A stretch of DNA of 41,466 bases, taken from Microcoleus sp. FACHB-DQ6 (GTDB taxonomy: Bacteria; Cyanobacteriota; Cyanobacteriia; Cyanobacteriales; Microcoleaceae). The position numbers were made by a program, and so were the translations under genes. Under the pieces are notes generated by a model that saw only the letters and a program-made list of their open reading frames with translations, did no database searches and was not told where the DNA came from. Every line of letters begins with the position of its first letter. Within the stretch, counting starts at the first letter, position 1. This document shows positions 9,562 to 35,374 of this stretch, piece after piece. The stretch is taken from positions 1-41,466 of the forward strand of contig JACJNV010000096.1 of NCBI GenBank assembly GCA_014695175.1, written 5' to 3'.

Positions 9562-10314
9562 ATGATTGTAAGTCTTTTTATAGTCATTTATTCTCAGACC
9601 AAACCTTGGCGGTCGCATTCGTTAATCTCCCTTCTGTTTCAAGAATTGCTGGCGAAAATTGCCGAGCAATTTGGTGTCTCTAGGGTAGTTGTTCAGAATA
9701 AAAATTTTCTCTTAGTTAATTCTCTAAATTCTATGTTGGAAGAACCGTTGGCGAGCAATACCAGTGAAGAAAACTATCTAGTCACCACTGTGATCTCTCA
9801 TGTAGTGAAACCGGGGCGCGAGCAAGGTTACGAAGCATGGTTTCATGGCATCGCCGCAGATGCACGAAAATTCAAGGGACATCTGGGTGTCAGCACTATT
9901 CGACCCCAGCATCACGCCCATCCTGAGTACGTTGTGATTCTCAAATTCGATTGCTACGACAATCTTAAAGCCTGGCTAGAATCTGATGTTCGGCGAGAGT
10001 GGATTGAGCGATTGCAGCCCTTGATTGAAAGGCCAGAAGATATTCAAACCCTGACCGGATTGGAAACCTGGTTTACGCTGCCCAATAAATCGATGAAGGC
10101 TCCACCCCCTCGCTACAAAATGGCCTTAGTTACATGGTTGGGAGTGTTTTGTACGATTTCTATTCTCAATCGTTTGCTTGTACCGCTACTATCTGGGCTT
10201 CCTGCGTTGCTCACATCTCTCACGATCACAGGTCTGACTGTTATCCTGCTCACCTATTTGATCATGCCGCGCTTAACACAAATATTTCGCAAATGGCTAT
10301 ATCCCATTCCATAA
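9562..10314 (+). CDS. Antibiotic-biosynthesis-monooxygenase (ABM) domain protein with C-terminal membrane helices
   Basis: 250 aa as an open frame. The ABM ferredoxin-like domain occupies about 72-175 (VTTVISHVVKPGREQGYEAW, GHLGVSTIRPQ, PEYVVILKFD, WERLQPL-type end). Two membrane helices follow at about 195-215 and 217-237, then a basic tail. This architecture (ABM plus two helices) is widespread; the substrate is unknown. The start is uncertain. The first 56 codons (MIVSLFIVIYSQ...) look unlike family members, and ATG at 9733, giving MLEEPLAS, is the more plausible start, though neither has a good ribosome site. An IS605-type end begins 2-3 bp after the stop codon. Confidence 0.75.
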   Translation: MIVSLFIVIYSQTKPWRSHSLISLLFQELLAKIAEQFGVSRVVVQNKNFLLVNSLNSMLEEPLASNTSEENYLVTTVISHVVKPGREQGYEAWFHGIAADARKFKGHLGVSTIRPQHHAHPEYVVILKFDCYDNLKAWLESDVRREWIERLQPLIERPEDIQTLTGLETWFTLPNKSMKAPPPRYKMALVTWLGVFCTISILNRLLVPLLSGLPALLTSLTITGLTVILLTYLIMPRLTQIFRKWLYPIP

Positions 10315-10315
10315 A

Positions 10316-10440
10316 TTGACATCCTCACGCCCGCTAAAGCCACGGTGATTCCAAGAATCACTTCTTAGATCTTTCTGCTTCATAGCAACTGCCATCAGAC
10401 TTATGTCTATCCGGTCTTACGTTGGGTCCACAGACTTTCT
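10316..10440 (-). mobile_element. IS200/IS605-family right end with possible omega-RNA scaffold
   Basis: Read on the minus strand, this segment follows the tnpB stop codon and ends GGCTTTAGCGGGCGTGAGG then ATGTCAA. That is the subterminal hairpin and terminus typical of cyanobacterial IS605/IS1341 elements. A perfect small hairpin GTGATTC-CAA-GAATCAC (about 10350-10366) lies inside. In active elements the RNA from the tnpB 3' end through the right end is the guide (omega) RNA. Whether it is still expressed is unknown. Confidence 0.65.
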
Positions 10441-10600
10441 TTAACCGCAAGAGAAAGCGGCGAGAATATTCAAAGCTGCATTCACATCCCGATCGTGGTG
10501 AGTGCCACATTTAGGGCAATCCCATTCCCGAATATTGAGTGGCAGCTTTTCCACGATGTGCCCACATTCCCCACATCGTTTAGAACGAGGACTAGAAAGC
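10441..10600 (-). pseudogene. tnpB: TnpB C-terminal stump (IS605/IS1341 family)
   Basis: The minus-strand frame reads [13 protein letters not shown], then [20 protein letters not shown], and stops with FSCG. This is the C-terminal zinc ribbon (CxxC...CxxC) and the RuvC-III Asp motif (DRDVNAA) of TnpB nucleases. Everything upstream is lost. At about 10590-10660 the sequence changes to a plus-strand fragment ([14 protein letters not shown]) that resembles a transposase helix-turn-helix, so another element may have truncated it. Confidence 0.85.
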
Positions 10601-10689
10601 CTCATTCAGCAAGGAGAATCTGTGAGTGAGATTGCTTGTTTTACCAGCTTCTAGATTGCTCGTTTAGATGCAGTTATTCATCCACTTCT

Positions 10690-10732
10690 ATAAAAAATTA
10701 AAATTAGGGGTGAGTGCTTTTCACTTACCCCT
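10690..10732 (-). terminator. Rho-independent terminator of the psaK-like gene
   Basis: On the minus strand AGGGGTAAGTG pairs with CACTCACCCCT across a 5-base loop (one G-T type mismatch). It is followed by an AATTTTAATTTTTTATAG tract. It lies about 70 bp downstream of the psaK-like stop codon. Confidence 0.75.
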
Positions 10733-10802
10733 GCCATTTTTGGTCTGCCTTTTAACCTACCGATTGTAGCAATCAGTCGCCACAGAAGCGACGCAATTGC
10801 TC

Positions 10803-21110: not shown

Positions 21111-23612
21111 ATGACAACTTCAAGATTTGATCTTCAAGACTTGAAACGCCGCTTTTGGCGGATTTCGCGGGTGCCGACGGCAACGCTAGTCGTGTTGGGG
21201 GCGGTTGCTTTCGCAGGTGCGATCGCCGCAGCCTGGTTTGCCCGCGAAGGTACAGTCAGCGGTATTTTTGCCACAATCAACACTTGGCAGCAAAACCCGC
21301 CTGTGTGGCTGCAAGTGCCTGCTACGAGCAAGATGTATTTGTTAGTGCCGACTATCGCGCTTGTCTCCGTTGCTTTAGCTGCAATTAAAATTTCGCCTCA
21401 ACCGCAGAAATGGTCGCGCGCTGTAGTAGTTGCAATAGTTCTGGCTTTAACAATTCGCTACGTTTTATGGCGATCGCTCGCTACTCTAAATTTAACCGAT
21501 CCCCTCAACGGTATCTTTAGTTTGGGGCTATTTTTCCTAGAAATGCTACTGGTTTTCAACACCAGTATTCAACTGTATTTAATGCTGAGAATGAAAGACC
21601 GGCGTCGAGAAGCCGATCGCATGGCAGTTGCAGTGGAAGCTGGAAACTTCACCCCGTCCGTAGATATTTTTATCCCAACTTACAACGAACCGGCTTTTAT
21701 TTTACGGCGCACTGTAATCGGCTGTCAAGCTTTAGATTATGCCAACAAAAAAGTATATTTGCTCGACGATACCAAGCGGCATGAAATCAAGTTGCTGGCA
21801 AAAGAACTGGGATGCGAGTATATAACCAGACCCGATAATATTCACGCCAAAGCTGGAAACATTAACCATGCCACAGGCTTAACTAATGGAGAACTAATTG
21901 TAGTTTTCGATGCAGATTTTATTCCCACTAAAAACTTTTTAACTCGAACAGTTGGATTTTTTCAAAATCCCGAAATCGCCCTCGTTCAAACACCGCAAAG
22001 TTTTTACAACCACGACCCCATCTCCCGTAATTTAGGTTTAGAAAATGTGCTCGCGCCGGAAGAAGAAATATTTTACCGGCAAATTGAAATCATCAAAGAC
22101 AGCGCCGACAGCGTGGTTTGTTGCGGTACATCTTTTGTAGTTAGGCGGAGTGCTTTAGAAACAGCCGGAGGCTTGGTTACAGATTCAATCTGCGAAGATT
22201 ATTTTACCGGAATTCGGCTGTCAGCAACCGGATATCGCTTAGTTTATTTAGATGAAAAATTGAGTGCTGGTTTGGCGGCTGAAAATATAGAGGCTCATCT
22301 AAATCAAAGGCTACGCTGGGCGCGAGGCACGCTTCAGGCATTTTTTATTGATTCCAATCCTTTAACAATTCGCGGTCTCACATTCGTACAAAGGCTGTCT
22401 CATTTGGAAGGATTGCTGCACTGGTTTACCAGTTTAACCAAGGTTTTCTATCTGTTAATACCTTTAGGTTATTCGTTTTTCCACATAATTCCTTTGCGGG
22501 CAAGTGCGCGGGAATTGCTGTACTTTTTCCTGCCTTACTATTTGGTGCAACTTACTGTGTTTTCTTGGCTGAACCGCAGATCGGGATCGGCTTTGCTTTC
22601 GGATATTTATTCGTTCGTCCAGTGTATTCCTTTAGCGGTGACGGTAGTGAGTTCCATGCTGAATCCCTTTGGGAAAGGGTTTCAGGTGACACCAAAAGGA
22701 ATGGCGAGCGATCGCTTTAGTTTTAACTGGAATTTGGGATGGCCTTTGATTGTCTTGTTCGCAGCTACAGCAGTCAGTTTGTGGCACAATTTAAACATTA
22801 ATTTAGTTAAAAATTTTGGCACCTTACAGTCAATATCAGAAAGTGCACAATTGTCAAAAGGAATGAGTTTGGGATGGATTTGGAGCGCTTACAACCTGCT
22901 GATGCTCGGGATTGCATTACTGATTTTGGTGGATATTCCTAAGCCGGACATTTACGAATGGTTCAATTTACGCAGGGTTGTACAATTGAATATTGGCGGT
23001 AAAAGTTTTTGGGGTATAACCACTGTAATTTCGGAAAGTGGCGCTGAAGTTGCTCTGACTCAGTGGCCAAATTTTGGGGTGAAAGGTAAAGGTAGTAAAG
23101 AGAGTTTGACCCCAGCAGAGATTTTGCCAAAATATGCCGTTCAGACAAGTTTATTGCAGGGTAAAATAAAAGCGCTTTCTCGCAGTGCGGCAGTCAAAGC
23201 AAGGAGATCGGTAGCGCCGTCTGTTGTTGAGTTGGACACTGAGCGTCGTTTGGCCAAAGGTTTGATTGATTGCGATTCGGCCACTCTGGAAATTATGGAA
23301 GAGAACTGTTTTATTCCTGTGGCTAAGATTGAGTTGGTTAGCGATAAATCTCAGTTGGAGTCGAGTTTTCGGGATGGAAAAAACGGCAGTTTTGTGGAAT
23401 TTCCTACTGTGCGAATTGCGTTCGATCGCCTGAACATTAGCCAGCACCGCTGTTTGATCGAAATGCTGTACTGTCGGCCCGGCCAGTGGAAGCGGCAGGA
23501 AACTCCCGGAGAATGGCGATCGCTGTGGCTGTTGTTGAGAATTGCTTTGAAACCGAGGGCTGTTTTTGAGAGGAATAGGTCAGTTAGACCGATCGCCGTT
23601 TCGCAACTTTAG
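21111..23612 (+). CDS. BcsA-like cellulose synthase catalytic subunit (GT2 plus degenerate PilZ)
   Basis: 833 aa. Two to four membrane helices come first (about 18-45, 75-95, 103-122, 135-160). The family-2 glycosyltransferase domain follows with all four processive motifs: Asp219-Asp220 in LLDDTKRHEIK, DAD at 267-269, the catalytic-base Asp363 in SICEDYFTGIRL, and Q399-R-L-R-W403. More helices follow (about 425-620). The last 200 residues contain a PilZ-like domain in which the c-di-GMP arginine motif RxxxR is altered (LRRVVQL) and the D/NxSxxG motif reads VISESG. The likely product is a beta-glucan such as cellulose, made at the plasma membrane. No bcsB-type partner is next to it. No ribosome site is seen before the ATG. 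Confidence 0.9.
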   Translation: MTTSRFDLQDLKRRFWRISRVPTATLVVLGAVAFAGAIAAAWFAREGTVSGIFATINTWQQNPPVWLQVPATSKMYLLVPTIALVSVALAAIKISPQPQKWSRAVVVAIVLALTIRYVLWRSLATLNLTDPLNGIFSLGLFFLEMLLVFNTSIQLYLMLRMKDRRREADRMAVAVEAGNFTPSVDIFIPTYNEPAFILRRTVIGCQALDYANKKVYLLDDTKRHEIKLLAKELGCEYITRPDNIHAKAGNINHATGLTNGELIVVFDADFIPTKNFLTRTVGFFQNPEIALVQTPQSFYNHDPISRNLGLENVLAPEEEIFYRQIEIIKDSADSVVCCGTSFVVRRSALETAGGLVTDSICEDYFTGIRLSATGYRLVYLDEKLSAGLAAENIEAHLNQRLRWARGTLQAFFIDSNPLTIRGLTFVQRLSHLEGLLHWFTSLTKVFYLLIPLGYSFFHIIPLRASARELLYFFLPYYLVQLTVFSWLNRRSGSALLSDIYSFVQCIPLAVTVVSSMLNPFGKGFQVTPKGMASDRFSFNWNLGWPLIVLFAATAVSLWHNLNINLVKNFGTLQSISESAQLSKGMSLGWIWSAYNLLMLGIALLILVDIPKPDIYEWFNLRRVVQLNIGGKSFWGITTVISESGAEVALTQWPNFGVKGKGSKESLTPAEILPKYAVQTSLLQGKIKALSRSAAVKARRSVAPSVVELDTERRLAKGLIDCDSATLEIMEENCFIPVAKIELVSDKSQLESSFRDGKNGSFVEFPTVRIAFDRLNISQHRCLIEMLYCRPGQWKRQETPGEWRSLWLLLRIALKPRAVFERNRSVRPIAVSQL

Positions 23613-23628
23613 AGGGAATTTCTCCTAG

Positions 23629-23967
23629 TTGGGAATTTTTCACCCCAAATATCAGCAGATGAAGGCTGAGGGATTTTTAGAGAATCTTACCTCCTCTCTT
23701 TTAAGTAATGGTGCAAAAATTTTTATACATTTTCAGTTAGCAAATAGAGATAATTTTCAAGATTTGGATAAATTCTTGGGGTGGTTCTACGAACGTCGGT
23801 TTGGGTTTGCAACTTGGAAATCAAATACCAGAATTTTGGGAGTAGCTGTTTGGCATCCTGGTTAGCTGCAAGATCTACTTCCAGCAGTATTTGCTACTCT
23901 CAAAAACCAAACTTTTAGTGTTAGGTTGAGGCGATATCGATCGCTTGTTTTGCCTATCCCAATTTGA
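23629..23967 (+). pseudogene. Interrupted ORF of unknown family (in-frame TAG)
   Basis: A frame starting with TTG at 23629 runs 78 codons to TAG (23863-23865), ending NTRILGVAVWHPG. In the same frame it continues LQDLLPAVFATLKNQTFSVR and on to TGA at 23965. Both halves look protein-like, so a Trp/Gln codon may have become a stop. I do not recognise the family. It could also be a genuine 78-aa protein, but no ribosome site is evident. Confidence 0.35.
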
Positions 23968-24338
23968 CGATCGACTTTTGCGGACTTTTGCGAATTGGGT
24001 CCGAGGAAGGAAAAAATCGGGGAATTGGGCGAAAACTCCGGTTAGTCGTGGTACACTCCACTAAGCTGTATATCCCGCTGAGTGTAAATAAATCGCCGTT
24101 TAATGTGGGGCTACGGCCCTTTAACAGCGACCAAGTGCAGGATTTGGCGCAACGGCAAGGACTGGATTGGCCAGCGAAAGATGCCCAGCCACTGACAGGT
24201 TTTGTAAATAGGAATACATATTTAGTACGGGTAGCTCTTGATCGTATCGGGCGTGGGGATGTCACTCCAGAGCAAGTATTGCAAAACTCTCCCATCTGTG
24301 CCGGAATTTATGGCGATCGCCTACAACGACAACTTTAG
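23964..24338 (+). pseudogene. C-terminal remnant of an AAA-like domain protein
   Basis: From about 24036 the frame encodes LRLVVVHSTKLYIPLSVNKS, SPFNVGL, QVQDLAQRQGLDW, NRNTYLVRVALDRI and VLQNSPICAGIYGDRL. This is the region after the ATPase core of cyanobacterial AAA-like (PF14516-type) proteins as I remember them. The Walker motifs and everything upstream are missing, and the N-terminal part of this frame is unrelated. Two of the segments carry small changes relative to the usual pattern (a deletion around LPxELPEF). It is almost certainly gene debris. Confidence 0.7.
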
Positions 24339-24418
24339 CAGCTTTAATTATATAACTAGCAATTTGCGTTACTACCATAACTGAAACACATTTTGCGATC
24401 GCTTGGAGGAAGTTACAT

Positions 24419-25207
24419 TTGAAAACGGGATCTTTAACTGTTGTCGGGACGGGAATTCAATTAGTTGGTCATCTGACCTTAGCAGCGAAGGCGTCGATCG
24501 AGCAAGCTGACAAAGTTCTGTTCGCCGTAGCCGATCCTGTTACTGCTAAATGGCTACAGACACTCAATCCCACCGCAGAAGCCTTACCTTACAATACTAA
24601 CAATCAGCGGCGTAGAGAAACTTATCGAGAAATGGTCGATCGCATTTTGGCTGAAGTTCGTCAGGGGTTGAATGTCTGTGCGGTTTTTTACGGTCATCCC
24701 GGTGTCTTTGCTTACCCTACCCATGAAGCAATTAAACAGGCGCGTCACGAAGGTTTTAGGGCGCAAATGTTACCAGGAATTTCAGCGGAAGATTGCTTAT
24801 TTGCTGACTTGGGTCTTGACCCAGGACGCAACGGATGTCAAAGTTTTGAAGCCACTGACTTTCTGATTCGGAGGCGGAAATTTGACCCGACCAGTGCTTT
24901 AATTTTGTGGCAAATTGCGACTATCGGCAATCTGGGTTTTTATCAAGAAGGGATTCAATTGCGCGGTCTAACTGTGTTAGCTGAAGTGTTAGAAACATAC
25001 TATGGTTCTGACCACGAAGTAATTGTTTACGAAGCAGCGGTTTATTACCCGGTTTGCGAGCCAGTTGTCCAGCATATTCCTCTGTCAAAACTGGCTGAGA
25101 TTCGTGTTACTCTAGTTTCGACACTTTATGTTCCGCCTCAAGCGCCTGCACCTGTAGACAGTGAAATGATGGCACGGTTGGGTATGTCTTTTGTTAAAGA
25201 AACTTAA
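24419..25207 (+). CDS. Borosin-type peptide alpha-N-methyltransferase (split, SonM-like)
   Basis: 262 aa, tetrapyrrole-methylase fold. The whole sequence parallels the Shewanella borosin enzyme SonM as I recall it: GSLTVVGTGIQLVGHLTL, KWLQTLNP, RRETYREMVDRIL, YGHPGVF, AQMLPGISAEDCLFADLG, FEATDFL, LILWQIATIG, DHEVIVYEA and ISTL-like VSTLYVPP. Arg65, Tyr69 and Tyr91 keep the spacing of the OphMA catalytic residues Arg72, Tyr76 and Tyr98. Such enzymes methylate backbone amides of a precursor peptide. No core peptide is fused to its C-terminus; a matching precursor is encoded at 27710-27988. Translation starts with TTG at 24419, supported by GGAGGA ending 8 nt upstream. Confidence 0.93.
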   Translation: MKTGSLTVVGTGIQLVGHLTLAAKASIEQADKVLFAVADPVTAKWLQTLNPTAEALPYNTNNQRRRETYREMVDRILAEVRQGLNVCAVFYGHPGVFAYPTHEAIKQARHEGFRAQMLPGISAEDCLFADLGLDPGRNGCQSFEATDFLIRRRKFDPTSALILWQIATIGNLGFYQEGIQLRGLTVLAEVLETYYGSDHEVIVYEAAVYYPVCEPVVQHIPLSKLAEIRVTLVSTLYVPPQAPAPVDSEMMARLGMSFVKET

Positions 25208-25238
25208 GGTATTTTGCCAAGAGAATGTAGTAAAAACT

Positions 25239-25267
25239 ACACTTTTTATCCAGCAGATAAAAAGTGT
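25239..25267. promoter_or_regulatory. Perfect 12-bp hairpin between methyltransferase and first TPR gene
   Basis: ACACTTTTTATC-CAGCA-GATAAAAAGTGT. AT-rich and without a T-run after it, it may act as an attenuator or RNA-processing or stabilising site inside the putative operon rather than a full terminator. Confidence 0.5.
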
Positions 25268-25294
25268 ATGTGTTAGAGGAGAAAAAATGTGGTA

Positions 25295-26152
25295 ATGTCG
25301 CTTTATATAGAACAAAACCCTGACGATGCTAAGGCTCTGGCTCATCATGGTGAAAACCATCGGCTGACGGGAAATTTTGAAGCTGCGTTAGATGATTTTA
25401 ACCGATCGCTCGACTTGGAACCTAACAATGCTTGGGCGATCGCACACCGGGGCGAAACTTATTATCTGATGAAACGCTATCAGGAGGCTTTTGCAGATTT
25501 TCACCGAGCAATCGAGTTGCAGCCTGATTATACTTGGGCGATCGCTCACCGAGGCGTAACCTACCGCTTTCTGGGAGAAGCATATTACCCAAAGGCTCTG
25601 GCTGACTTGGATCGAGCAATTGAGCGTCAGCCGGATTACGTTTGGGCGATCGCTTATCGCAGTCGCCTCTATGAGTTGATGAAGTGCTACAAGAAAGCCT
25701 TGATTGACTTCGATCGAGCGATCGCCCTTGACGAAACCATATTTGCGGGGAAAAATTGGCAAATTGAGAAAGGGTTGATCCTTTGCTATGATGGCCAATA
25801 TTCTGAGGCGATCGCCTGTTGCGAACAGAGGTTGCAACAAATTGCTGATGACACGACAGCTTTGTACTGTATCGCAGTATCTAAAGCGCGTTGGCAGGGA
25901 GTGGACAAAGCAGCCACCGAAATCGAGCGATCGCGGACAGCATTACTTGCTCAATGGGAAACGGGCGATCGGGGAGATATTCTCTACCGACTCAGCGGTT
26001 TAGCAATTTTGACAGGTAACTGCGAACAAGCATGGCAATATCTGCGAGAAGCTATTCCGATCAATGATGAAGCCATTGAGTTAGTCGGTCACGATCCAGC
26101 TTGGTTGGATTGGCGGGACGACCCGAGAACTCAGGCATTACTCGCTAGTTAA
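25295..26152 (+). CDS. TPR-repeat protein of the borosin locus (1)
   Basis: 285 aa from ATG 25295; GTG at 25289 in the same frame, 7 nt after AGAGGAG, is an equally possible start. It consists of tetratricopeptide repeats. Successive units at 34-36-residue spacing carry the signature WAIAHRGETYYLM, WAIAHRGVTYRF and WAIAYRSRLYELM, each preceded by DRAIE.QPDY. The C-terminal half has further, weaker helical repeats and ends RTQALLAS. There is no signal peptide or membrane helix, so it should be a cytoplasmic scaffold. Its place between the methyltransferase and the precursor gene suggests a role in precursor handling; this is inference. Three HIP1 octamers fall exactly on the WAIA codons. Confidence 0.85.
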   Translation: MSLYIEQNPDDAKALAHHGENHRLTGNFEAALDDFNRSLDLEPNNAWAIAHRGETYYLMKRYQEAFADFHRAIELQPDYTWAIAHRGVTYRFLGEAYYPKALADLDRAIERQPDYVWAIAYRSRLYELMKCYKKALIDFDRAIALDETIFAGKNWQIEKGLILCYDGQYSEAIACCEQRLQQIADDTTALYCIAVSKARWQGVDKAATEIERSRTALLAQWETGDRGDILYRLSGLAILTGNCEQAWQYLREAIPINDEAIELVGHDPAWLDWRDDPRTQALLAS

Positions 26153-26211
26153 GTGTTTGAGAAAACAAATTTCAAGTAATTAAACATCAAGTGTCTTTTC
26201 AGGATAATTTT

Positions 26212-27612
26212 ATGCAGATGGATATCAGCGATATGATGATGGCTCAACAAGCAGAAACTCTTCGCTTGTCAGGGGCTTACGAACAGGCGATCGAGATCTT
26301 TGAACAACTCCAAATGTATCCTGACAATGCTTGGGTTAATGCTCACTTAGGAGCCACCTATTACCATTTGATGGATTATGGGAAAGCAGAACATTATTTA
26401 AAGAAAGCGATCGACAAAAACGATAAGTATTTCTGGGCTCATGCACAGCTAGGTGAAACCTATCGTCTTCGAGCAATTACGGAAAATAACAAAAGACCAG
26501 AATATGTTGAATTAGCTATCGAGCATTTCCAAAAAGCGCTTGATAAACCACCAGAAGACAGCAACTATGCGTGGGCCTTAGCTCACTTGGGGGCAACCCA
26601 TCGCCTGTATATAACTAAGGGTATCAGCCAATTCCTGAAGGAGCCGATATCTCAGCAACCTAATCCAGAGAATTATTGCGGAAAAGAAAAGATAAAACAC
26701 CACGCAGAAGACGCTTTGAAATGCCTTAACAGAGCGATTGAACTCATGCCTACATACGCTTGGGCATGGGGTATGCGATCGACAGTTTTCAGATTGACTC
26801 AAGACTACGAAAATTCATTTTGGGATGTAGAAGTTGAAGCGGTAATAGCTCCGAATATGGAGATTATGCAACAGTCTTCTTCTCCCGTTCCATTCTTAAA
26901 AACTGGCAGAGTAAATCTTTACGAACACGCTTTCCTGTCTTTTTATTTGACAAAAAAACCATCACGCCCAGAGGATAAAAAAAGACACTACGTTAGGGCG
27001 ATCGCTTTTCTCCAACAAGCTTTGATACTTAGTCCAGGTGACTTGATGGCTAAGCTAATTCTCACCATAATTGAAGCTAACCAAAAGAAGGAAGAAAGGG
27101 GGTCATTAAAACCCAATGACATTAAAAACATTCAAAGAAAATTAGAGCAGTTTTTTGCAGATACAGAAGTGGAGTTTTGCCAAAAATGTAAAAAGCTATT
27201 GCGACATCAAATTAATGTTCCAAAACCGTCAGTTAGTATCGAGCAGTTGAAATGGATAAATAGTCATGCTGAGGAGGGACATAAATTAAAGAAGCTTATT
27301 TTGGAAGAGGTGATAAAGAACCCTACATCAGGTTTTGAAAAAGAGCCTCAATTATGGCTATGGAAAAACTTTGAGCTGACAGAGATGTGGAGTTATATTC
27401 TTTTCTTTCTTTGTGAAGCAAGCCATCTCCTGGGAAACAAAAGTAATATTGGTACAGAAACGGCTTATCTAGAGCTTGCATTCCTTATCAATCCTTACTA
27501 CGTTACAGAAAGGCTTTATCAAACTCCAGTGTTTTCACATGAAGACCGAGCAAAGATATTTAAAAAGTTGCACGATGATGGAATAGTGTTAAAATTTTCT
27601 GAACCCAATTAA
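26212..27612 (+). CDS. TPR-repeat protein of the borosin locus (2)
   Basis: 466 aa from ATG 26212, chosen because AGGA lies about 7 nt upstream; GTG 26191 would add 7 residues. The N-terminal 190 residues are TPR-like with the same wording as the previous protein: NAWVNAHLGATYYHLMDY, FWAHAQLGETYRLRA and WALAHLGATHRLY. A 40-residue insertion lies between repeats. The C-terminal 230 residues are helical and of unknown type, with CQKCKKLLRH near 330 and FELTEMWSYILFFLCEASHL near 395. No signal peptide is seen. The precursor gene begins 97 bp downstream on the same strand. It may be paralogous to the first TPR protein over the N-terminal part. Confidence 0.82.
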   Translation: MQMDISDMMMAQQAETLRLSGAYEQAIEIFEQLQMYPDNAWVNAHLGATYYHLMDYGKAEHYLKKAIDKNDKYFWAHAQLGETYRLRAITENNKRPEYVELAIEHFQKALDKPPEDSNYAWALAHLGATHRLYITKGISQFLKEPISQQPNPENYCGKEKIKHHAEDALKCLNRAIELMPTYAWAWGMRSTVFRLTQDYENSFWDVEVEAVIAPNMEIMQQSSSPVPFLKTGRVNLYEHAFLSFYLTKKPSRPEDKKRHYVRAIAFLQQALILSPGDLMAKLILTIIEANQKKEERGSLKPNDIKNIQRKLEQFFADTEVEFCQKCKKLLRHQINVPKPSVSIEQLKWINSHAEEGHKLKKLILEEVIKNPTSGFEKEPQLWLWKNFELTEMWSYILFFLCEASHLLGNKSNIGTETAYLELAFLINPYYVTERLYQTPVFSHEDRAKIFKKLHDDGIVLKFSEPN

Positions 27613-27709
27613 TGAAACCCTTAATTGCCAGAAAATCAACTGAAAAAATTAATGACGATTAGTTTAGTTCTTCACTGTTCGCGACCTTAGAGATTTAGGA
27701 GAATATCCC

Positions 27710-27988
27710 ATGAGTAACCTATTGGATTTATTAACAGATTTAGCACTTGACACGAAAAAACAAAGTGCTTTCCTCAACAACCCCAGTTCCTTAATGGACG
27801 AAGTGGGTTTAACTGAAGCAGAAAAAACCGCAATGATGAGTGGTGAAAATGCTAAAATTGCCGCAATCTTTGCAGAGGAACGAGTTCCGTTTGCTATTAC
27901 TTTTGTCGATCCCGGCCCCGACCCCTTGCCAGATCCAGACCCTTTTCCTCCTTCTCCACCGCCAGACCCCAAACCTGACTCTGACTAG
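27710..27988 (+). CDS. Split-borosin precursor peptide (SonA-like leader, Pro/Asp-rich core)
   Basis: 92 aa. Residues 1-55 match the borosin-binding leader of SonA as I remember it: DLLTDLALDTKKQSAF, then NNPSSLMDEVGLTEAEKTAM and MSGENAKIAAIF. The rest is a candidate core: a hydrophobic stretch VPFAITFV (59-66) followed by DPGPDPLPDPDPFPPS and PPPDPKPDSD, with 14 Pro and 7 Asp in the last 33 residues. In known borosins the methyltransferase N-methylates hydrophobic core residues, so 59-66 is the likeliest target; Pro cannot be N-methylated. The ATG has AGGAG 8 nt upstream and a strong terminator follows. The partner enzyme lies at 24419-25207. Whether a protease, cyclase or exporter acts later is unknown; none is seen nearby. 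Confidence 0.9.
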   Translation: MSNLLDLLTDLALDTKKQSAFLNNPSSLMDEVGLTEAEKTAMMSGENAKIAAIFAEERVPFAITFVDPGPDPLPDPDPFPPSPPPDPKPDSD

Positions 27989-28059
27989 GATGTGGATTTG
28001 AAGTCAAACCACTAATAATTTTCTACACTTGGGAAAGTAGATTGATATTTCCTCATCTC

Positions 28060-28086
28060 AAACCGCACTTGTGGCGGTTTTTTATC
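28060..28086 (+). terminator. Rho-independent terminator after the precursor gene
   Basis: AAACCGC-ACTTGTG-GCGGTTT followed directly by TTT then ATCC, giving six consecutive T. It closes the borosin locus and shows that a GTG at 28071, inside the stem, is not the start of the following gene. Confidence 0.85.
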
Positions 28087-28100
28087 CTCAAAACCTAACT

Positions 28101-31100
28101 ATGCAAAATTACCAAATTACTGAAAAACTGCATGAGAGCAGTAACTCCTTAGTCTATCGCGGATATCGGCAAACAGACAATCTGCCTGTTATCCTCAAAA
28201 TGCTCAAAGAATCCTATCCTTCACCTGAAAAAATTGCCTGGTTTAAGCGAGAGTATGAAATAACCCAAAACATTAACTTACCAGGCGTAATAGATGTTTA
28301 CAGCTTCCCAAACCTAGAAAATCAGTGGGTAATTGCGTTAGAAGATTTTGGTGGCGAATCCCTCAATTATATAATCGCTAAGAAACAATTTACAATTGCT
28401 GAATTTCTCCATCTGGCAATTGAAATTGTTGACATTCTCGGTCAGGTTCACCAGCAGCACATCATTCATAAAGATATTAACCCATCAAATATTGTTTTAA
28501 ATCAGCAGACAGGTAAGCTGAAGCTAATTGATTTTGGAATTTCTACAACCCTGTCGCGAGAAAACCAAAGTTTTCTTAACCCGAACGTATTAGAAGGAAC
28601 GCTAGCTTATCTCTCGCCAGAACAAACAGGTCGCATGAATCGAACAATCGATTACCGCACTGATTTTTACTCGCTGGGGATAACTTTTTATGAATTACTA
28701 ACGGGACAGTTACCCTTCCCCACGAATGATGTTTTGGAATTAGTGCATTGTCATATTGCCAAACAACCTACCGCACCCCACGAAATTTCACCAGAAGTTC
28801 CACCTATTATTTCAACTATCCTGTTAAAATTAATGGCAAAAAATGCTGAGGAACGCTACTTATCAGCATATAAAATAAAGGCAGATTTACAAGAATGTCT
28901 CAGACAATGGCAGAGCAAAGAGCAAATTGACCCTTTCCCGATTGATCGGCACGAGATTTCCGATCGATTTCAAATTCCGCAAAAACTGTACGGGCGAGAG
29001 CGGGAAATTTCTGCCTTATTAGCTGCTTTCGAGCGAGTCAGCCAAGGAACCAGCGAAATGATGCTGGTTTCAGGATATTGTGGGATTGGAAAAACTGTAT
29101 TAATACAAGAAATATATAAGCCGCTGACTCGCCAACGCGGTTATTTTATTTCTGGTAAGTTTGACCAATTTCAACGAGATACTCCCTACGCATCCTTAAT
29201 TCAGGCATTTCGTTCGTTAGTGCGGCAGTTACTAACAGAAAGCGATGCAGAAATTAGCAAGTGGCGAGAGAAACTCCAAGCAGAATTAGGGGAAGCTGGA
29301 GGGGTAATCGTTGAAGTTATTCCTGAAGTAGAACTAATTATTGGTTCGCAACCACCCCTACCAGATCTCCCGCCAGCAGAACAGAGAAATCGCTTTAATC
29401 TGGTTTTTCAAAAATTTATTAATACATTTACTCAGCCCGAACATCCGCTCGTAATTTTCTTAGACGACTTACAGTGGGCAGATAGAGCCTCGCTGGAATT
29501 AATTCAACTGCTGATGACAGTAGTAGATAAGAAATATCTATTTCTCATGGGCGCATATCGGGATAATGAAGTAACCGAGGCGCATCCGCTAACTCAAATT
29601 CTGGAAAATATTGCTAAAGCAAAAGTAACAACAATTAATAAAATATTTTTGACACCTTTAGCCTTAACCGATATTACGCAACTTTTAGTTGATACGCTTT
29701 TTGCGGAATCAAAAAATGCTAAGCCACTTGCCAAATTGCTCCAGCAAAAAACTGGTGGTAATCCGTTTTTTATCAATGAATTCTTAAAATCCCTGCATTC
29801 TGAAGCATGGTTATATTTTAACTACGAATCTCAGAAATGGCAGTGGGACTTAGAACAAATCAAAGCGCAACCCCTTACAGATAACGTTTTAGATCTGACG
29901 AGCAAAAATGTCAAAAAACTCCCGACAGCAACTCAGGCAGTCTTAAAATTAGCAGCTTGCATAGGAAATCAGTTTGACTTGAAAACACTGGCGATTATAT
30001 ACGAAAAACCTCTCCAAGAAACAGCAACAGATTTACGGTCAGCACTCCAATCCGGTCTAATTATACCCCTCAGCCATGCCTATCAGTTGGCGGAACTTGA
30101 TGTAGCAGGTTTGTCCGAGCGATTGGTTGCAGAATACAAATTTGCTCACGATCGCATTCAACAAGCAGTTTACTCTCTCATCTCCGAAGCAGATAGACAG
30201 TCAGTACATCTGCGCGTGGGCAGGTTGTTACTGGAAAATACACCATCTGAAGAATTGGCACAGAAGCTGTTTGATATTGTCAATCAATTGAACAAAGGCC
30301 GAGCGCTGATCGAGCGACAAATAGAGCGATACGAGTTAGCCCAATTCAACTTACAGGCAGGTAAAAAAGCCAAATCTTCAGCGGCTAGCCAACAAGCTTT
30401 CAATTACCTTCAGATCGGCTTAAATTTGTTAAATAACAAGAGTTGGTCGCAGCAGTACAACCTTACCTTAGATTTATATTTAGAAGTTGCCGAAACAGCT
30501 TATACAATTGCCAACTACGATGAAATGGATCGCTTATCGGGGGTAGTTTTGCAAAAAGCCAAAACGCTGTTAGACAAAGTAAAAGTCTATGAAATCAAAA
30601 TGCAAGCTTATTGCGCTCAAATTAAATTCCTAGAAGCGATCGACATTGGGCTAGAAGTTCTGAAATTATTAGGGGTAGAATTACCGCAACGACCGAACCA
30701 ATCCGATCTGGCACAAGAGATGGAGCAGATAACATCTGCTTTAGCGGGCAGGCAAGCCCAGGATCTAATCGACTTACCGCAAATGACCGACCCGTATAAA
30801 CTGGCCGCTATGCGGGTGATGAACTACTTGTCGAGTCCTGCGTTCATAGCACTTAATCAACTGAGCTTGTTAATGTGGTGCAGACAGGTAAATTTATCAA
30901 TTCAGTATGGTAATTCTGCTGGCTCTGCTTTTCCATACATAGGTTATGGACTGATCCTCTGCGCGTCAGGAGAGCTGGACACTGGATATCAGTTTGGAAA
31001 ACTTGCTTTGAAGCTACTAGAACAATTCAAAGATAGAACATTTAAAGCAAAAATTTATGCAATATATAAGGGATTTATCAAGCATTGGAATGAACCGCTC

Positions 31101-33446
31101 AGAGATACATCTTCTTTGTGCATGGAAGCTTATCATAGTGGCATAGAAACAGGCGATTTTGACTGTGCTGCTAGTATTACCCTTAGCTATGCTTACGCTT
31201 TGTACCTCAGCGGTGTGGAGCTGATCGATGCCAAGAAAGAAATGGCGAAAGCCCTTGAATTTACTTATCAAACTCAACAGGAAGCATACATTCATTGGGG
31301 TCAAATCTTTATGCAGGCGATCCTGAACTTGGGGGAACAAGTAGAAAATCCCTGCTGTTTGATTGGTGAAGTATACGACGAACAAAAGATGATACCCGTT
31401 CATCAAGCAGGTGGCGATCGAACTGGGCTCATGCACGTTTATTCACATAAACTTATCCTCTGTTATCTGTTTGAGGAATTTCAGCAAGCTGTGGAGAATG
31501 CAGACCGCTTTGAAGAATACTCAGCTAATGCAGCTTCCTTGTTTATTCTCCCTGTTGTCTATTTGTATGATATGTTAGCCCGACTAGCGCTATATCCTAA
31601 TTCCTCAGAAACGGAAAGAGAAGAAATCCTGACAAAGGTGGCTACTAAACAAGAAAAAATGGAAACATGGGCAAAGCAGGCTCCCATGAATTACCTGCAC
31701 AAATTCTATCTAGTAGAAGCGGAACGCGATCGCGTATTAGGCAACGATAAAGATGCCCGAGAATATTACGATAAAGCCATCATCTTAGCCCGCGAAAACG
31801 AATATCTCAACGAAGAAGCCCTCGCCTACGAACTAGCAGGCAGGTTTTATTTAGCCAGAAATCAAAATCATGTTGCCCGTCACTACTTGCAAGATGCCCA
31901 CTATGCTTATCAGCGCTGGGGGGCTGTAGCTAAAGTAAAAGATTTAGAAGGGCGATACCCGCAGTTTTTAGCCATTCAGTCGCTTGGTTCAACCCGAACA
32001 GCTACTGAAAATAATACCATCAATCCAGTCACCACAACTGGTAGCAATTCCGGCGAAGCGCTAGATTTTGCCGCAGTAATGAAAGCATCTCAAGCTATCT
32101 CCGGTGAAATCGTTCTCGAACAATTGTTAAACCAGGTGATGAAAACTGTGATTGAAAACGCAGGCGCTCAAAAAGGTTTTCTGATTCTGGATAAAGGCGG
32201 GAATTGGGCGATTGAAGCGGAAGCAGCCGTAGAATGCGAGATCATTACCATTATGCAATCCATTCCCGTAGATTCTGTAGATCCTGCAACTGGAATTCCC
32301 CTGCTGTCAACCGCCATAGTTAACTACGTCGCTCGCAGCCACGAAAATGTAGTATTAAATAACGCCACCGATGAAGGACTATTTACTGGGGATTCTTACA
32401 TTACCGCAACTGGGCCCAAATCGATCCTCTGCACCCCCCTACTCAATCAAGGCAAACTAGGTGGAATTCTCTATTTAGAAAATAATTTGGCGATCGGTGC
32501 ATTTACTTCGGAAAGAGTCGAAACTTTAAAAATCATTGCCGCTCAAGCTGCGATATCGATTGAAAATGCAACTCTCTACGAAAAATTAGAAGATTACAAC
32601 CGAACTTTAGAGCAAAAAGTAGAAGAGCGAACCGCACAATTAGCCCAAGCTAATGCAGAAATATTGGGTTTGAACGAACGGCTCAAAGTAGAAAACCTTC
32701 GCATGAGTGCCGAACTAGACGTAACTCGCCGCCTGCAACAAATGATTTTGCCTCAACAGCAGGAATTAGAGTCAATTGAAGGGCTAGAAATTGCTGCATT
32801 CATGGAACCGGCTGATGAAGTTGGCGGCGACTACTACGACGTACTAAATCACGGCGGTAAAGGCACAATAGGCATCGGCGACGTGACAGGACACGGTTTA
32901 GAAAGCGGCGTGTTAATGATTATGGCGCAAACAGCAATTCGCACTTTGTTGGTTCACAATGAAACCGACCCCGTTAAATTATTGCAGACCGTCAACCACA
33001 CGCTTTTTGACAACGTAGAGCGCATGGATTGCGGTAAAAGTATGAGCCTTTCTTTGCTGGAATATCGGGGCGACAACATCCTGCGTTTGAGCGGACAGCA
33101 CGAAGAGGTGATTGTCGTGCGTTCCAGCGGCGAAGTAGAGCAGATTGATACCATGGAGTTAGGCTTTCCCATCGCATTGGAAGCCGATATTGCCGATTTC
33201 ATTGCTTCTACTGAAATACAGTTGAATTCCGGGGATGTTGTTGTACTCTACACAGATGGAATTACCGAGGCTTTTGATATGAAGAAAGATCAATACGGTA
33301 TCGAACCATTGATTGAAGTTGTTGTCCTTAACAGGGAACAGTCAGCAGCAGAAATCAAGCAAGCTGTTATTGACGACGTGCGGCGATACATCGGGGAGCA
33401 AAAAGTATTTGATGACATTACTTTGGTAGTAATCAAACAGAAGTAA
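28101..33446 (+). CDS. Giant Ser/Thr kinase - AAA ATPase - GAF - SpoIIE/PP2C phosphatase
   Basis: 1781 aa from ATG 28101 (MQNYQITEKL). A Ser/Thr kinase domain covers about 1-265: HKDINPSN with catalytic Asp125, IDFGIS, and TLAYLSPEQTGR. An AAA-type ATPase follows, with Walker A GYCGIGKT near 325 and Walker B VIFLDDLQWAD near 450. Then come about 700 residues of helical repeats, a GAF domain (about 1322-1490), a coiled coil (VEERTAQLAQAN) and a SpoIIE/RsbU-type PP2C phosphatase (about 1556-1780) with GGDYYDVL, GDVTGHGLESG and DGITEAFD. Related cyanobacterial proteins usually end in a histidine kinase; here the output is a phosphatase, which typically acts on anti-sigma-antagonist proteins. It follows the borosin terminator and has no ribosome site, so linkage to that locus is uncertain. 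Confidence 0.93.
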   Translation: MQNYQITEKLHESSNSLVYRGYRQTDNLPVILKMLKESYPSPEKIAWFKREYEITQNINLPGVIDVYSFPNLENQWVIALEDFGGESLNYIIAKKQFTIAEFLHLAIEIVDILGQVHQQHIIHKDINPSNIVLNQQTGKLKLIDFGISTTLSRENQSFLNPNVLEGTLAYLSPEQTGRMNRTIDYRTDFYSLGITFYELLTGQLPFPTNDVLELVHCHIAKQPTAPHEISPEVPPIISTILLKLMAKNAEERYLSAYKIKADLQECLRQWQSKEQIDPFPIDRHEISDRFQIPQKLYGREREISALLAAFERVSQGTSEMMLVSGYCGIGKTVLIQEIYKPLTRQRGYFISGKFDQFQRDTPYASLIQAFRSLVRQLLTESDAEISKWREKLQAELGEAGGVIVEVIPEVELIIGSQPPLPDLPPAEQRNRFNLVFQKFINTFTQPEHPLVIFLDDLQWADRASLELIQLLMTVVDKKYLFLMGAYRDNEVTEAHPLTQILENIAKAKVTTINKIFLTPLALTDITQLLVDTLFAESKNAKPLAKLLQQKTGGNPFFINEFLKSLHSEAWLYFNYESQKWQWDLEQIKAQPLTDNVLDLTSKNVKKLPTATQAVLKLAACIGNQFDLKTLAIIYEKPLQETATDLRSALQSGLIIPLSHAYQLAELDVAGLSERLVAEYKFAHDRIQQAVYSLISEADRQSVHLRVGRLLLENTPSEELAQKLFDIVNQLNKGRALIERQIERYELAQFNLQAGKKAKSSAASQQAFNYLQIGLNLLNNKSWSQQYNLTLDLYLEVAETAYTIANYDEMDRLSGVVLQKAKTLLDKVKVYEIKMQAYCAQIKFLEAIDIGLEVLKLLGVELPQRPNQSDLAQEMEQITSALAGRQAQDLIDLPQMTDPYKLAAMRVMNYLSSPAFIALNQLSLLMWCRQVNLSIQYGNSAGSAFPYIGYGLILCASGELDTGYQFGKLALKLLEQFKDRTFKAKIYAIYKGFIKHWNEPLRDTSSLCMEAYHSGIETGDFDCAASITLSYAYALYLSGVELIDAKKEMAKALEFTYQTQQEAYIHWGQIFMQAILNLGEQVENPCCLIGEVYDEQKMIPVHQAGGDRTGLMHVYSHKLILCYLFEEFQQAVENADRFEEYSANAASLFILPVVYLYDMLARLALYPNSSETEREEILTKVATKQEKMETWAKQAPMNYLHKFYLVEAERDRVLGNDKDAREYYDKAIILARENEYLNEEALAYELAGRFYLARNQNHVARHYLQDAHYAYQRWGAVAKVKDLEGRYPQFLAIQSLGSTRTATENNTINPVTTTGSNSGEALDFAAVMKASQAISGEIVLEQLLNQVMKTVIENAGAQKGFLILDKGGNWAIEAEAAVECEIITIMQSIPVDSVDPATGIPLLSTAIVNYVARSHENVVLNNATDEGLFTGDSYITATGPKSILCTPLLNQGKLGGILYLENNLAIGAFTSERVETLKIIAAQAAISIENATLYEKLEDYNRTLEQKVEERTAQLAQANAEILGLNERLKVENLRMSAELDVTRRLQQMILPQQQELESIEGLEIAAFMEPADEVGGDYYDVLNHGGKGTIGIGDVTGHGLESGVLMIMAQTAIRTLLVHNETDPVKLLQTVNHTLFDNVERMDCGKSMSLSLLEYRGDNILRLSGQHEEVIVVRSSGEVEQIDTMELGFPIALEADIADFIASTEIQLNSGDVVVLYTDGITEAFDMKKDQYGIEPLIEVVVLNREQSAAEIKQAVIDDVRRYIGEQKVFDDITLVVIKQK

Positions 33447-33560
33447 GTATGGGAGAATTTAGTTGAGGCAGTGTCAAATATCTTTCGAGACTTTGGCGAA
33501 AAATATATATTTAATTTGGCCTCGCATAATTGGGGGATGATTTTGATTGTTTTGTGGGAT

Positions 33561-33711
33561 GGGATCATGATCCCAGGGCGGTTTCATTCTCAGGGAAATC
33601 ATCGTTTTGTAGGGGTAGTGCCCCCGTGCCTACCCCCTCCACTGACGATTCGGCGTTTCAAATATCGGGGCAACCACGGGGGGTTTGCCCCTACGGAGAA
33701 TGAAACAGCCC
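33561..33711. repeat. Inverted-repeat element in the 33447-33940 gap
   Basis: GGGCGGTTTCATTCTC (33576-33591) is repeated inverted as GAGAATGAAACAGCCC (33696-33711), with 15 of 16 bases matching. The interior carries GGGGTAGTGCCCCCGTGCC and GGGGCAACCACGGGGGG, which can pair partly with each other. A perfect palindrome GGGATCATGATCCC (33561-33574) abuts it. It looks like a 136-bp MITE-type element. The rest of the 494-bp gap shows no gene; the 113-codon plus-strand frame there is made of repeat sequence. Confidence 0.65.
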
Positions 33712-33940
33712 TGCCCATGAGCCCATCCGATGTATTTTCACCGCAGGCGGGACGCCTAACCCCTACTCCCCACAAGAATCATCCTCAAATTGTGCAACGC
33801 CCCGTGTCCTGATTGTGCGTAATATTAATTCCGATGCAAGCGGATTTGATATAACTACTCATCTTGTAATAATTTCTGCTTGATAAGCTATAGAACTTAT
33901 TACTGAATATTATCACCTACATTTCGCGATCGCCAATAGT

Positions 33941-35374
33941 TTACAAACCGGATATCGGCACAAACTCGTAACCGTAACTGGTGCGATTTCCTGGTTTAAC
34001 AGTTACTAACTGAACGGCTCGATTGCGATCGCCCGAAGGTAAAAACCGAATCGGGCCCGATGCTCCTTTTGCCGAAAAATCTGACGCCGATAAAGCTTGT
34101 TGAATGCCTGTACGAGTCGGATTGCGCCCTAAACCGACACTCAACGCGATCGCCGCGTCGTAGGCTAAAGCTGTGCGCCAACTTACTTCAGCATTCCAAA
34201 GTTGTTTGGATGTTTGGGGAAAGTTTGACTGCGGATCTGCGAGAATGTGCCAAGGAACAGCCAGCACCATATCTGTTGCTCCTGCGCCACCGATTTGCAG
34301 TGTTTTAGCAGTATAAGCATCGTCTCCTGCTAGTAATGGCAGCCGTTTGGCGTTTACTTGCACTACTTGCAAAGCTTGGTCGAGCGTGGCTGAATTGGAT
34401 GCTAACATAATCACTTCTGCTCCTTGGGCGATCGCACTTTTAACGCTCTCGGCGGCATTAAAATTGCCATTAGCAAAGTCAAATTCGCCTACTATTTGTC
34501 CTCCATCTCCGTAAAGAGCGGTAGTGAATTCATCTTTTAAAGATTTGCTGTAACTGCTGGCAGAATAGAAAAATACAGCAGCTTTTTGCTTTTGCAATTT
34601 TTCCACCATATAGCGGGAAAGAGCATTAGCCGCAAACCGATCGCTCGGCACTGTCCGAAATATATTTTTGGCAACTCCAGAAAGCTCCCCAGATGTACTT
34701 GTCGGAGAAATTGCTACTAATTGTTTTTGCTGGTAAATCTTGCTGGCTGCTAAGGTTGTATCTGAAGCAAAATGCCCGATAACTCCTAAAATTTCCGAGT
34801 TATTTGCTAAAGCAGTGGCAATTTGTGCAGCCATTTCTGGGTTGTTGTCATCGTTAGCAATGAGCACTTTTAATGGAGTGCCGCTAATGCCGCGGCTTTG
34901 GTTGATTTCATTTTGAGCTTGAGCTACGCCCCGCATAATTTCTAGAGCAGCATTGAGATCGCCGCCAATGGGAACTGCGGCGGCAATTGTGTAGGATTTT
35001 TGATCGGCGATGCGGGCGTTGTTGAGGTAAATTAGTGCTTCGGGATCGTTGCGATTGGTTTTCAGCGAAGCTTGTAAGTCGGAAATAGCTGCGTTATAGT
35101 TGCCAGATGCGATCGCCTGTACTGCTGCTTGTTTAGTTGTTGTGGCTTGCTGTGGAATTAACAGTTTTTGTCCGGCACTCAGACGCTGCTGTATTGTCTG
35201 CTCTGACTGCGGGGAATTCCCTGTCGCAGACTTGGGAAATGTCTGATTTTGGGGTGATAAACCTCCGAGATTGATGCCGCCTCGGCTTGTCAGCCACCAA
35301 ATACCTGCACCGGCTAGCCCGATCGTAATTAGGAGTGATAAGATGAGAACAGCAGTTTCATTTTTTTGTGACAT
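33941..35374 (-). CDS. Periplasmic-binding-protein-like (Leu/Ile/Val type) receptor with membrane anchor
   Basis: 477 aa. A membrane helix lies at about 8-28, then a low-complexity linker and a short TPR-like segment (AIASGNYNAAISDLQASLK, DPEALIYLNNARI). From about 128 to 470 there is a type I periplasmic-binding fold: IAAAVPIGGDLNAALEIMRG, GTPLKVLIANDDNNPEMAAQ, ILGVIGHFASDTTLAAS, VAISPTSTSGELSG and FRTVPSDRFAANALS. These receptors serve branched-chain amino acid or urea uptake, or act as sensors. No permease or ATPase gene is next to it, and the TPR linker is unusual for a transporter component, so a sensing or scaffold role is possible. The region upstream of the start carries no clear ribosome site. 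Confidence 0.85.
   Translation of the reverse strand: MSQKNETAVLILSLLITIGLAGAGIWWLTSRGGINLGGLSPQNQTFPKSATGNSPQSEQTIQQRLSAGQKLLIPQQATTTKQAAVQAIASGNYNAAISDLQASLKTNRNDPEALIYLNNARIADQKSYTIAAAVPIGGDLNAALEIMRGVAQAQNEINQSRGISGTPLKVLIANDDNNPEMAAQIATALANNSEILGVIGHFASDTTLAASKIYQQKQLVAISPTSTSGELSGVAKNIFRTVPSDRFAANALSRYMVEKLQKQKAAVFFYSASSYSKSLKDEFTTALYGDGGQIVGEFDFANGNFNAAESVKSAIAQGAEVIMLASNSATLDQALQVVQVNAKRLPLLAGDDAYTAKTLQIGGAGATDMVLAVPWHILADPQSNFPQTSKQLWNAEVSWRTALAYDAAIALSVGLGRNPTRTGIQQALSASDFSAKGASGPIRFLPSGDRNRAVQLVTVKPGNRTSYGYEFVPISGL

What the first reader, a model, noticed from the sequence alone, without database searches (positions are those of the whole stretch)
24419..27988. Candidate cyanobacterial split-borosin RiPP locus
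The methyltransferase at 24419-25207 follows the SonM borosin enzyme along its length, and Arg65, Tyr69 and Tyr91 keep the catalytic spacing known from OphMA. The 92-aa product at 27710-27988 has a leader matching the SonA borosin-binding domain (NNPSSLMDEVGLTEAEKTAM, then MSGENAK). Together they make a backbone N-methylating system in which enzyme and substrate are separate proteins. Unlike the compact sonM/sonA arrangement I know of, two TPR genes lie between them. The split class is known, but I know of no described product from a cyanobacterium with this architecture.
Basis: partly seen in the sequence, partly recalled or inferred. Interest (0 to 1): 0.95.

Follow-up and report, generated by a model that had tools for sequence, protein, structure and literature searches.

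The report
Cyanobacterial split-borosin locus with kinase
A filamentous cyanobacterium carries an enzyme of the kind that puts methyl groups on the backbone of a small partner protein, and in related cyanobacteria the pair usually travels with helper genes and one large signalling kinase, which suggests the modified peptide may be a signal.

Summary
The finding holds. The 24419-25207 protein is a borosin-type backbone N-methyltransferase: all 25 PDB sequences matched at E<=0.001 are borosin enzymes, and a tree splits it from the seven other tetrapyrrole-methylase-family proteins of its genome. The 92-aa product is a split-borosin precursor: residues 3-57 are predicted as five helices, and 47 of 48 Foldseek matches are borosin structures, though none reaches E 0.001. 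Twelve of 14 cyanobacterial loci found with the enzyme carry the same ordered block: methyltransferase, 1-3 TPR genes, precursor, HstK-like kinase (window 28101-33446). Twelve cluster kinases form one clade apart from seven paralogues. Within the genus, enzyme and (near-)full-length kinase occur in the same 5 of 29 genomes. The most constrained part of the precursor is its Asp-Pro core, DPGPDPLPDPDP (pN/pS 0.18; leader 0.43), with Pro at even positions while SonA is methylated at odd ones. I read it as a split-borosin variant tied to a signalling kinase; methylation and signalling are inferred, not shown. Two key mining papers were not held, so earlier description cannot be excluded.

The parts
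24419..25207 (+). Borosin-type peptide backbone N-methyltransferase (262 aa, TTG start)
   Evidence: 25 of 25 PDB hits at E<=0.001 are borosin enzymes; tree; R65/Y69/Y91 kept in 15 of 15 cyanobacterial rows
25289..26152 (+). TPR protein 1 (287 aa)
   Evidence: Pfam TPR_1 2.6e-22; homologue between enzyme and precursor in the loci
26191..27612 (+). TPR protein 2 (473 aa from the GTG; an ATG at 26209 is where several homologues begin)
   Evidence: Pfam TPR_19 5.4e-12; homologue next to the precursor in most loci
27710..27988 (+). Split-borosin precursor (92 aa): borosin-binding-domain leader, linker, Asp-Pro core, acidic Pro-rich tail
   Evidence: SonA is the only PDB family matched; five-helix model matching SonA
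27710..27880 (+). Leader / borosin-binding domain, residues 1-57
   Evidence: helices 3-13, 15-23, 25-32, 36-44, 47-57; Foldseek TM (by target) about 0.85, rmsd 1.1-1.5 A against SonA chains at the top ranks
27908..27943 (+). Core DPGPDPLPDPDP, residues 67-78
   Evidence: pN 0.095, pN/pS 0.18, the most constrained of four segments of the precursor
28060..28080 (+). Terminator-like hairpin between precursor and kinase gene (7 pairs, then T run)
   Evidence: near-identical hairpin in 6 of 11 loci examined; the scan as a whole finds no more such sites than shuffles (11 against 11.0)
28101..33446 (+). HstK-like protein: Ser/Thr kinase, AAA_16 ATPase, GAF, SpoIIE phosphatase (ORF listed from GTG 28071; homologues start at 28101)
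   Evidence: Pfam Pkinase 1.3e-37, AAA_16 1.2e-47, GAF 9.2e-15, SpoIIE 3.7e-35; homologue downstream of the precursor in 12 of 14 loci; clade apart from paralogues

Best explanation
A split-borosin locus. The free methyltransferase (24419-25207) binds the five-helix leader of the free precursor (27710-27988) and uses SAM to methylate backbone amides of its C-terminal core; enzyme, TPR gene(s), precursor and HstK-like kinase form one inherited functional unit. Shown: identity of the enzyme family, leader fold (predicted model), conserved gene order, joint presence and absence, strong constraint on the core. Inferred from SonM-SonA: binding through the leader, N-to-C methylation starting near residues 63 and 65. 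Further inference (I give it about 0.4): the methylated Asp-Pro peptide is an intracellular or released signal handled by the TPR proteins and read by the kinase-AAA-GAF protein, whose output domain differs between species.
For: Enzyme. Precursor. Gene order M-TPR-A-kinase in 12 of 14 cyanobacterial loci. Precursor only in genomes with the enzyme, 5 of 386. Enzyme and kinase in the same 5 of 29 congeners; cluster kinases one clade, SH-aLRT 100. None of 7 other borosin loci examined has a homologue of the TPR proteins or kinase at E<=1e-8. Block absent as a whole at the same chromosomal site in a complete congener genome. Core pN/pS 0.18, unlike the leader at 0.43: fits a fixed receptor rather than a diversifying toxin.
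Against: No methylation, binding or expression data. Single-sequence match of the leader is modest (E 0.0015) and no Foldseek match of the precursor model has E<=0.001. The model of the enzyme has a poor domain arrangement (best PDB matches are SonM by E-value, but rmsd about 16 A, TM under 0.5). The tyrosine equal to SonM Y58 / OphMA Y66 is not certain: a Tyr is at 58 but the alignment to OphMA puts N59 there. HstK-like kinases are numerous in such genomes (PMC2176072 passages), so the kinase may merely regulate the locus. No protease or exporter is shared by the loci that I listed. L018 has kinase and truncated enzyme without a precursor.
Confidence: 0.85

Rival explanations
1. A split borosin making an ordinary exported natural product (antibiotic or siderophore-like); the kinase and TPR proteins only regulate its production or are needed for assembly.
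For: Accessory, patchy distribution (5 of 29 congeners; 7 of 386 genomes) is typical of natural-product clusters; a P450 gene sits in the cluster in L014 and L015.
Against: No shared exporter or protease gene in the listed neighbourhoods (a subtilase lies near in L017 only among the genes scanned); the core is the most conserved part rather than the most variable.
Confidence: 0.4
2. The enzyme methylates only the hydrophobic stretch just before the core (about residues 61-66, e.g. I63 and F65), and the Asp-Pro block is a recognition or solubility tail that is never modified.
For: The ungapped profile alignment puts window 63 and 65 on SonA L63 and I65, the two methylated residues; a review says borosin enzymes tested methylate primarily hydrophobic cores (PMC11285071 passage).
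Against: Residue 65 is not conserved (F, A, S, M, C, H, V) while the Asp-Pro block is nearly invariant.
Confidence: 0.45
3. The enzyme is a cobalamin/siroheme-type methylase and the small protein an unrelated LigA-like protein.
For: Generic Pfam TP_methylase match and weak NCBIfam matches to such enzymes, all far under cut-off.
Against: 25 of 25 PDB hits are borosin enzymes; tree separates it from 7 of 7 other TP-methylase-family proteins of the genome with 100/100 support.
Confidence: 0.01
4. A decaying, non-functional locus.
For: A congener (G388) keeps only the flanks and the kinase 3' end; L018 has a truncated enzyme.
Against: Window ORFs are intact; enzyme 97% identical between the window and L005; purifying selection on the precursor.
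Confidence: 0.04

Closest known systems
SonM-SonA, type IV split borosin of Shewanella oneidensis (PMC8429565)
   Same: Free enzyme of about 260 aa, free precursor with N-terminal five-helix leader ending near residue 55-57, same-length spacing to residues 63/65, key residues R67/Y71/Y93 present.
   Different: Two TPR genes between enzyme and precursor, a linked kinase, and an Asp-Pro core instead of a hydrophobic one.
OphMA / dbOphMA fused borosins (fungi)
   Same: Homologous methyltransferase domain and BBD-like clasp region.
   Different: Enzyme and substrate are one protein in OphMA, two here.
Fused borosin-like proteins of other cyanobacteria (L059 from G357, L060 from G129)
   Same: Homologous methyltransferase domain, 47% and 40% identical.
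   Different: Longer single proteins (436 and 739 aa), other neighbours, no TPR/kinase block.
HstK-type cyanobacterial kinases, cbSTKII/III (PMC2176072 passages)
   Same: N-terminal Ser/Thr kinase, GAF, variable C-terminal output.
   Different: Cluster members form their own clade and are linked to a borosin pair.
TOMM system kinase/cyclase fusion (NCBIfam TIGR03903)
   Same: A kinase-AAA signalling protein named after a RiPP system; residues 305-741 match, E 2.2e-46.
   Different: 158 bits against a cut-off of 705.75: not a member; different RiPP chemistry.

Membership tests
Split borosin | Borosin-clade alpha-N-methyltransferase, apart from other TP methylases | tested here: met
Split borosin | Active-site residues R67, Y71, Y93 (SonM numbering) | tested here: met
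   R65, Y69, Y91 in 15 of 15 cyanobacterial rows
Split borosin | Second active-site tyrosine (SonM Y58) | tested here: inconclusive
   Tyr58 invariant in 15 of 15 but its alignment to SonM Y58 / OphMA Y66 is off by one
Split borosin | Precursor is a separate protein with N-terminal five-helix BBD | tested here: met
Split borosin | Enzyme binds leader, forms heterocomplex | not testable with these tools
   only single chains could be modelled
Split borosin | Backbone N-methylation of the core | not testable with these tools
   needs mass spectrometry
Type IV to X subdivision (Imani 2022) | Type-specific architecture and core | not tested
   paper not held; fits 'class 3' (BBD and core fused, enzyme separate) as worded in a figure legend of PMC11395268
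HstK-like kinase (cbSTKIII, dual kinase) | Ser/Thr kinase plus GAF plus C-terminal His kinase | tested here: not met
   window protein has SpoIIE instead of HisKA, so not a dual kinase; the L011 homologue has HisKA/HATPase/response regulator
Tetrapyrrole (cobalamin/siroheme) methylase | Groups with those enzymes / passes their cut-offs | tested here: not met

The most novel reading that the evidence does not exclude
The core is methylated at every second residue (63, 65, 67, 69, 71, 73, 75, 77, 79), in phase with the prolines at 68-80, so that a run of about 17 backbone amides carries no N-H at all: a rigid, protease-proof, polyanionic peptide. It serves as a dedicated intracellular or cell-to-cell signal sensed by the kinase-AAA-GAF protein, making this a RiPP-ligand signalling system with exchangeable outputs.
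Probability: 0.15. Interest if true: 0.88.

Novelty: new variant of a known kind. Interest (0 to 1): 0.64.

Why it matters
As far as the passages that I read go, bacterial split borosins have enzymes and precursors but the finished products and their roles are largely open (PMC8429565, passages). Here the enzyme-precursor pair is inherited together with a specific sensor kinase, and the product part of the precursor is nearly invariant across families of cyanobacteria. That gives a concrete, testable candidate role (signal) and a candidate receptor, and an unusual Asp-Pro substrate for a class whose tested cores are mostly hydrophobic.

Tried and rejected
Tetrapyrrole methylase reading: rejected. 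A first tree was discarded because three of the seven own-genome control rows (tp049, tp050, tp053) had been cut from the wrong strand; the repeat with correct rows is. In that repeat the cyanobacterial enzymes are one side of a branch with only 82/97 support, and many inner branches are unresolved.

Viral contigs: 31 stretches matched a pattern, none encodes a relative. Plasmid records: 13 with a relative, none over 55% identity. Promoter- and terminator-like sites in 23500-34000 are no more frequent than in shuffles (22 against 19.7; 11 against 11.0), so I rest nothing on them except the hairpin's recurrence in relatives. The enzyme model was not good enough to use for geometry. Whole-genome paralogue census of the kinase was not possible; nine stretches holding paralogues were taken instead, one of which (C32, L078) gave a protein that did not align with residues 1-1540 and was dropped from the tree, as was the fragment of L015.
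Full report
Observation. The methyltransferase hits 25 PDB sequences at E<=0.001 and all are borosin enzymes: dbOphMA 1e-63, OphMA 3.5e-61, SonM 3.5e-60, MroMA 8e-59. Pfam sees only the general TP_methylase domain (3.4e-23), and NCBIfam models of cobalamin, siroheme and rRNA methylases match weakly, far under cut-off. In a tree of 32 rows the seven other TP-methylase-family proteins of the window's own genome (found) fall together, split from 25 borosin-type rows with 100/100 support. Key residues R65, Y69 and Y91 are present in 15 of 15 cyanobacterial rows; across the 25 borosin rows R65 and Y69 are in 25 and Y91 in 24 (an alignment that also held three mis-cut control rows). The four correctly cut control rows of that call have no Tyr at 69 or 91.

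Precursor. The 92-aa protein matches only SonA in the PDB (seven sequences, E 0.0015-0.0082). A 13-row profile of the family raises this to 6.6e-6, without gaps through residue 69, so that window I63 and F65 fall on SonA L63 and I65, the residues that SonM methylates (PMC8429565, passages). AlphaFold2 with 13 sequences predicts five helices over residues 3-57 (mean pLDDT 82-90 per ten residues up to 50, 66 for 51-60) and no structure after that; the paper describes a five-helix bundle. Foldseek returns 48 PDB matches, 47 of them SonM-SonA, OphMA or MroMA structures and one LigAB; none has E<=0.001, the best being 0.067 with probability 1.00.

The block. A scan of one genome per species with the enzyme gave 17 loci: 14 cyanobacterial, two Luteimonas, one Candidatus Parabeggiatoa fragment. 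In 12 of the 14 cyanobacterial loci (L005-L013, L015-L017) the order is enzyme, TPR gene(s), precursor, kinase, all on one strand. The number of TPR genes is two in L005-L010, L012 and L017, three in L013, one in L011, L015 and L016. The exceptions are L014, whose contig ends in the TPR gene, and L018, with a truncated enzyme, no TPR gene, no precursor found, and a kinase of another clade. Gene overlaps (-4, -1 and -25 bases between enzyme and TPR1 in L008, L010, L012; -4 between TPR2 and precursor in L017) suggest an operon. Upstream and downstream neighbours differ between loci, which marks enzyme-to-kinase as the unit. As a control, seven other borosin loci (L019, L020, L059, L060, L063, L064, L066) have no homologue of the TPR proteins or the kinase at E<=1e-8.

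Co-inheritance. Among 386 cyanobacterial genomes 7 have an enzyme at E<=1e-25; two of these (G357, G129) are long fused-type proteins. The precursor profile hits 5, the other five. In the genus the enzyme is in 5 of 29 genomes and the kinase DNA matches over 4,442 bases or more of 5,201 in the same five; in the other 24 the matches listed are partial (the list was cut, ten candidates scored per genome). Two of the five (G354, G402) match only to 4,442, in line with a different output domain. Twelve cluster kinases form one side of a branch (SH-aLRT 100; quick tree) against seven paralogues from the window's genome plus L018. Output domains seen in five cluster kinases scanned: SpoIIE in the window; AAA_35 in L006, L016, L017; HisKA-HATPase-receiver in L011.

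Empty site. The genes flanking the block (21111-23612 and 33941-35374) are 10,328 bases apart in the window, 10,331 in G396 and 10,761 in G099. In 18 of 29 genomes they are 131 to 2,297 bases apart; in the remaining 8 they are not found on one contig (my subtraction). In the one-contig genome G407 the alignment jumps from window 23622 to 33954 with 121 bases between. In G388 both flanks and the last 588 aligned bases of the kinase region (94% identical) remain, with enzyme, TPR, precursor and most of the kinase missing: a deletion scar. G354 has the short site and carries its block elsewhere. The block is thus an accessory unit gained or lost as a whole.

The core. Across 13 precursors, invariant residues in the second half are P68, D71, P72, P74, D75, P76, D77, P78. 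Over all 78 pairs pN/pS is 0.43 in the leader (1-53), 0.68 in the linker (54-66), 0.18 in the core (67-78) and 0.72 in the tail; pairs are not independent and synonymous changes are near saturation (pS 0.52-0.64). In 12 of 13 precursors every proline of the D-P-x-P block is at an even position counted from the aligned start (in L011 and L015 an internal start that I chose; in L017 after an eight-residue deletion); L013 is shifted by one inserted residue. SonA is methylated at 63 and 65, so alternate methylation would fall on the non-proline residues. The chance that the phase agrees is one half, so this is a prediction, not evidence.

Mechanism. By homology with SonM-SonA the leader docks on the enzyme and the core is threaded past SAM, N to C. 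The co-inherited kinase, the nearly fixed core and the lack of a shared exporter or protease in the loci listed make a signalling role the reading I prefer (about 0.4), with an exported natural product as near rival. A terminator-like hairpin just after the precursor gene, before the kinase, recurs in near-identical form in 6 of 11 loci examined (window, L005-L008, L010), as might let the precursor be made in excess over the kinase; it may also be simple common descent.

Literature. Held papers: PMC8429565 (passages), PMC11395268 (passages, introduction, figure legends), PMC11285071 (passages), PMC2176072 (passages), PMC8222398, PMC9505594 and PMC13097080 (borosin passages). Searches of borosin with cyanobacteria (8 papers), tetratricopeptide (0), kinase and precursor (9), Microcoleus or N-methyltransferase (22 holding two terms), signaling (7) gave no cyanobacterial split borosin in the listings. 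The two papers most likely to list one, Imani et al. 2022 and Lee et al. 2024, are not held; from memory the former counted over 1,600 bacterial split-borosin clusters, so the enzyme group may already be catalogued. Hence 'new variant of a known kind'.

Noticed in passing
23964-24335 (+): Remnant of an AAA_35 protein (profile 147-272 of 331, E 3.9e-33) just upstream of the enzyme; in L006 an intact 459-aa AAA_35 protein stands there, and similar-looking ORFs do in L007 and L009 (by eye).
   Followed up: partly
28060-28080 (+): Terminator-like hairpin between precursor and kinase, near-identical in 6 of 11 loci.
   Followed up: partly
L014:1647-2852; L015:10959-12014: Cytochrome P450 genes between enzyme and TPR gene in two loci: possible extra tailoring.
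   Followed up: partly
L059:2772-4082; L060:7278-9497: Fused-type borosin proteins in two other cyanobacterial genomes (G357, G129).
   Followed up: partly
L063:7629-7928; L064:9906-10169: Split precursors with the same leader type beside enzymes on a Streptomyces and a Bradyrhizobium plasmid record, with quite different cores; the Bradyrhizobium region has two enzymes, a TauD-type dioxygenase and a prolyl oligopeptidase-type gene.
   Followed up: partly
L021; genome G408: A Candidatus Parabeggiatoa genome has pieces of a close enzyme relative on two contigs, two of them in different frames, and a TPR relative.
   Followed up: no
L067: Deletion scar of the block in G388: flanks and kinase 3' end kept.
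   Followed up: yes
L017:9086-9862 and 9995-10777: Two enzyme genes in tandem in one block.
   Followed up: no
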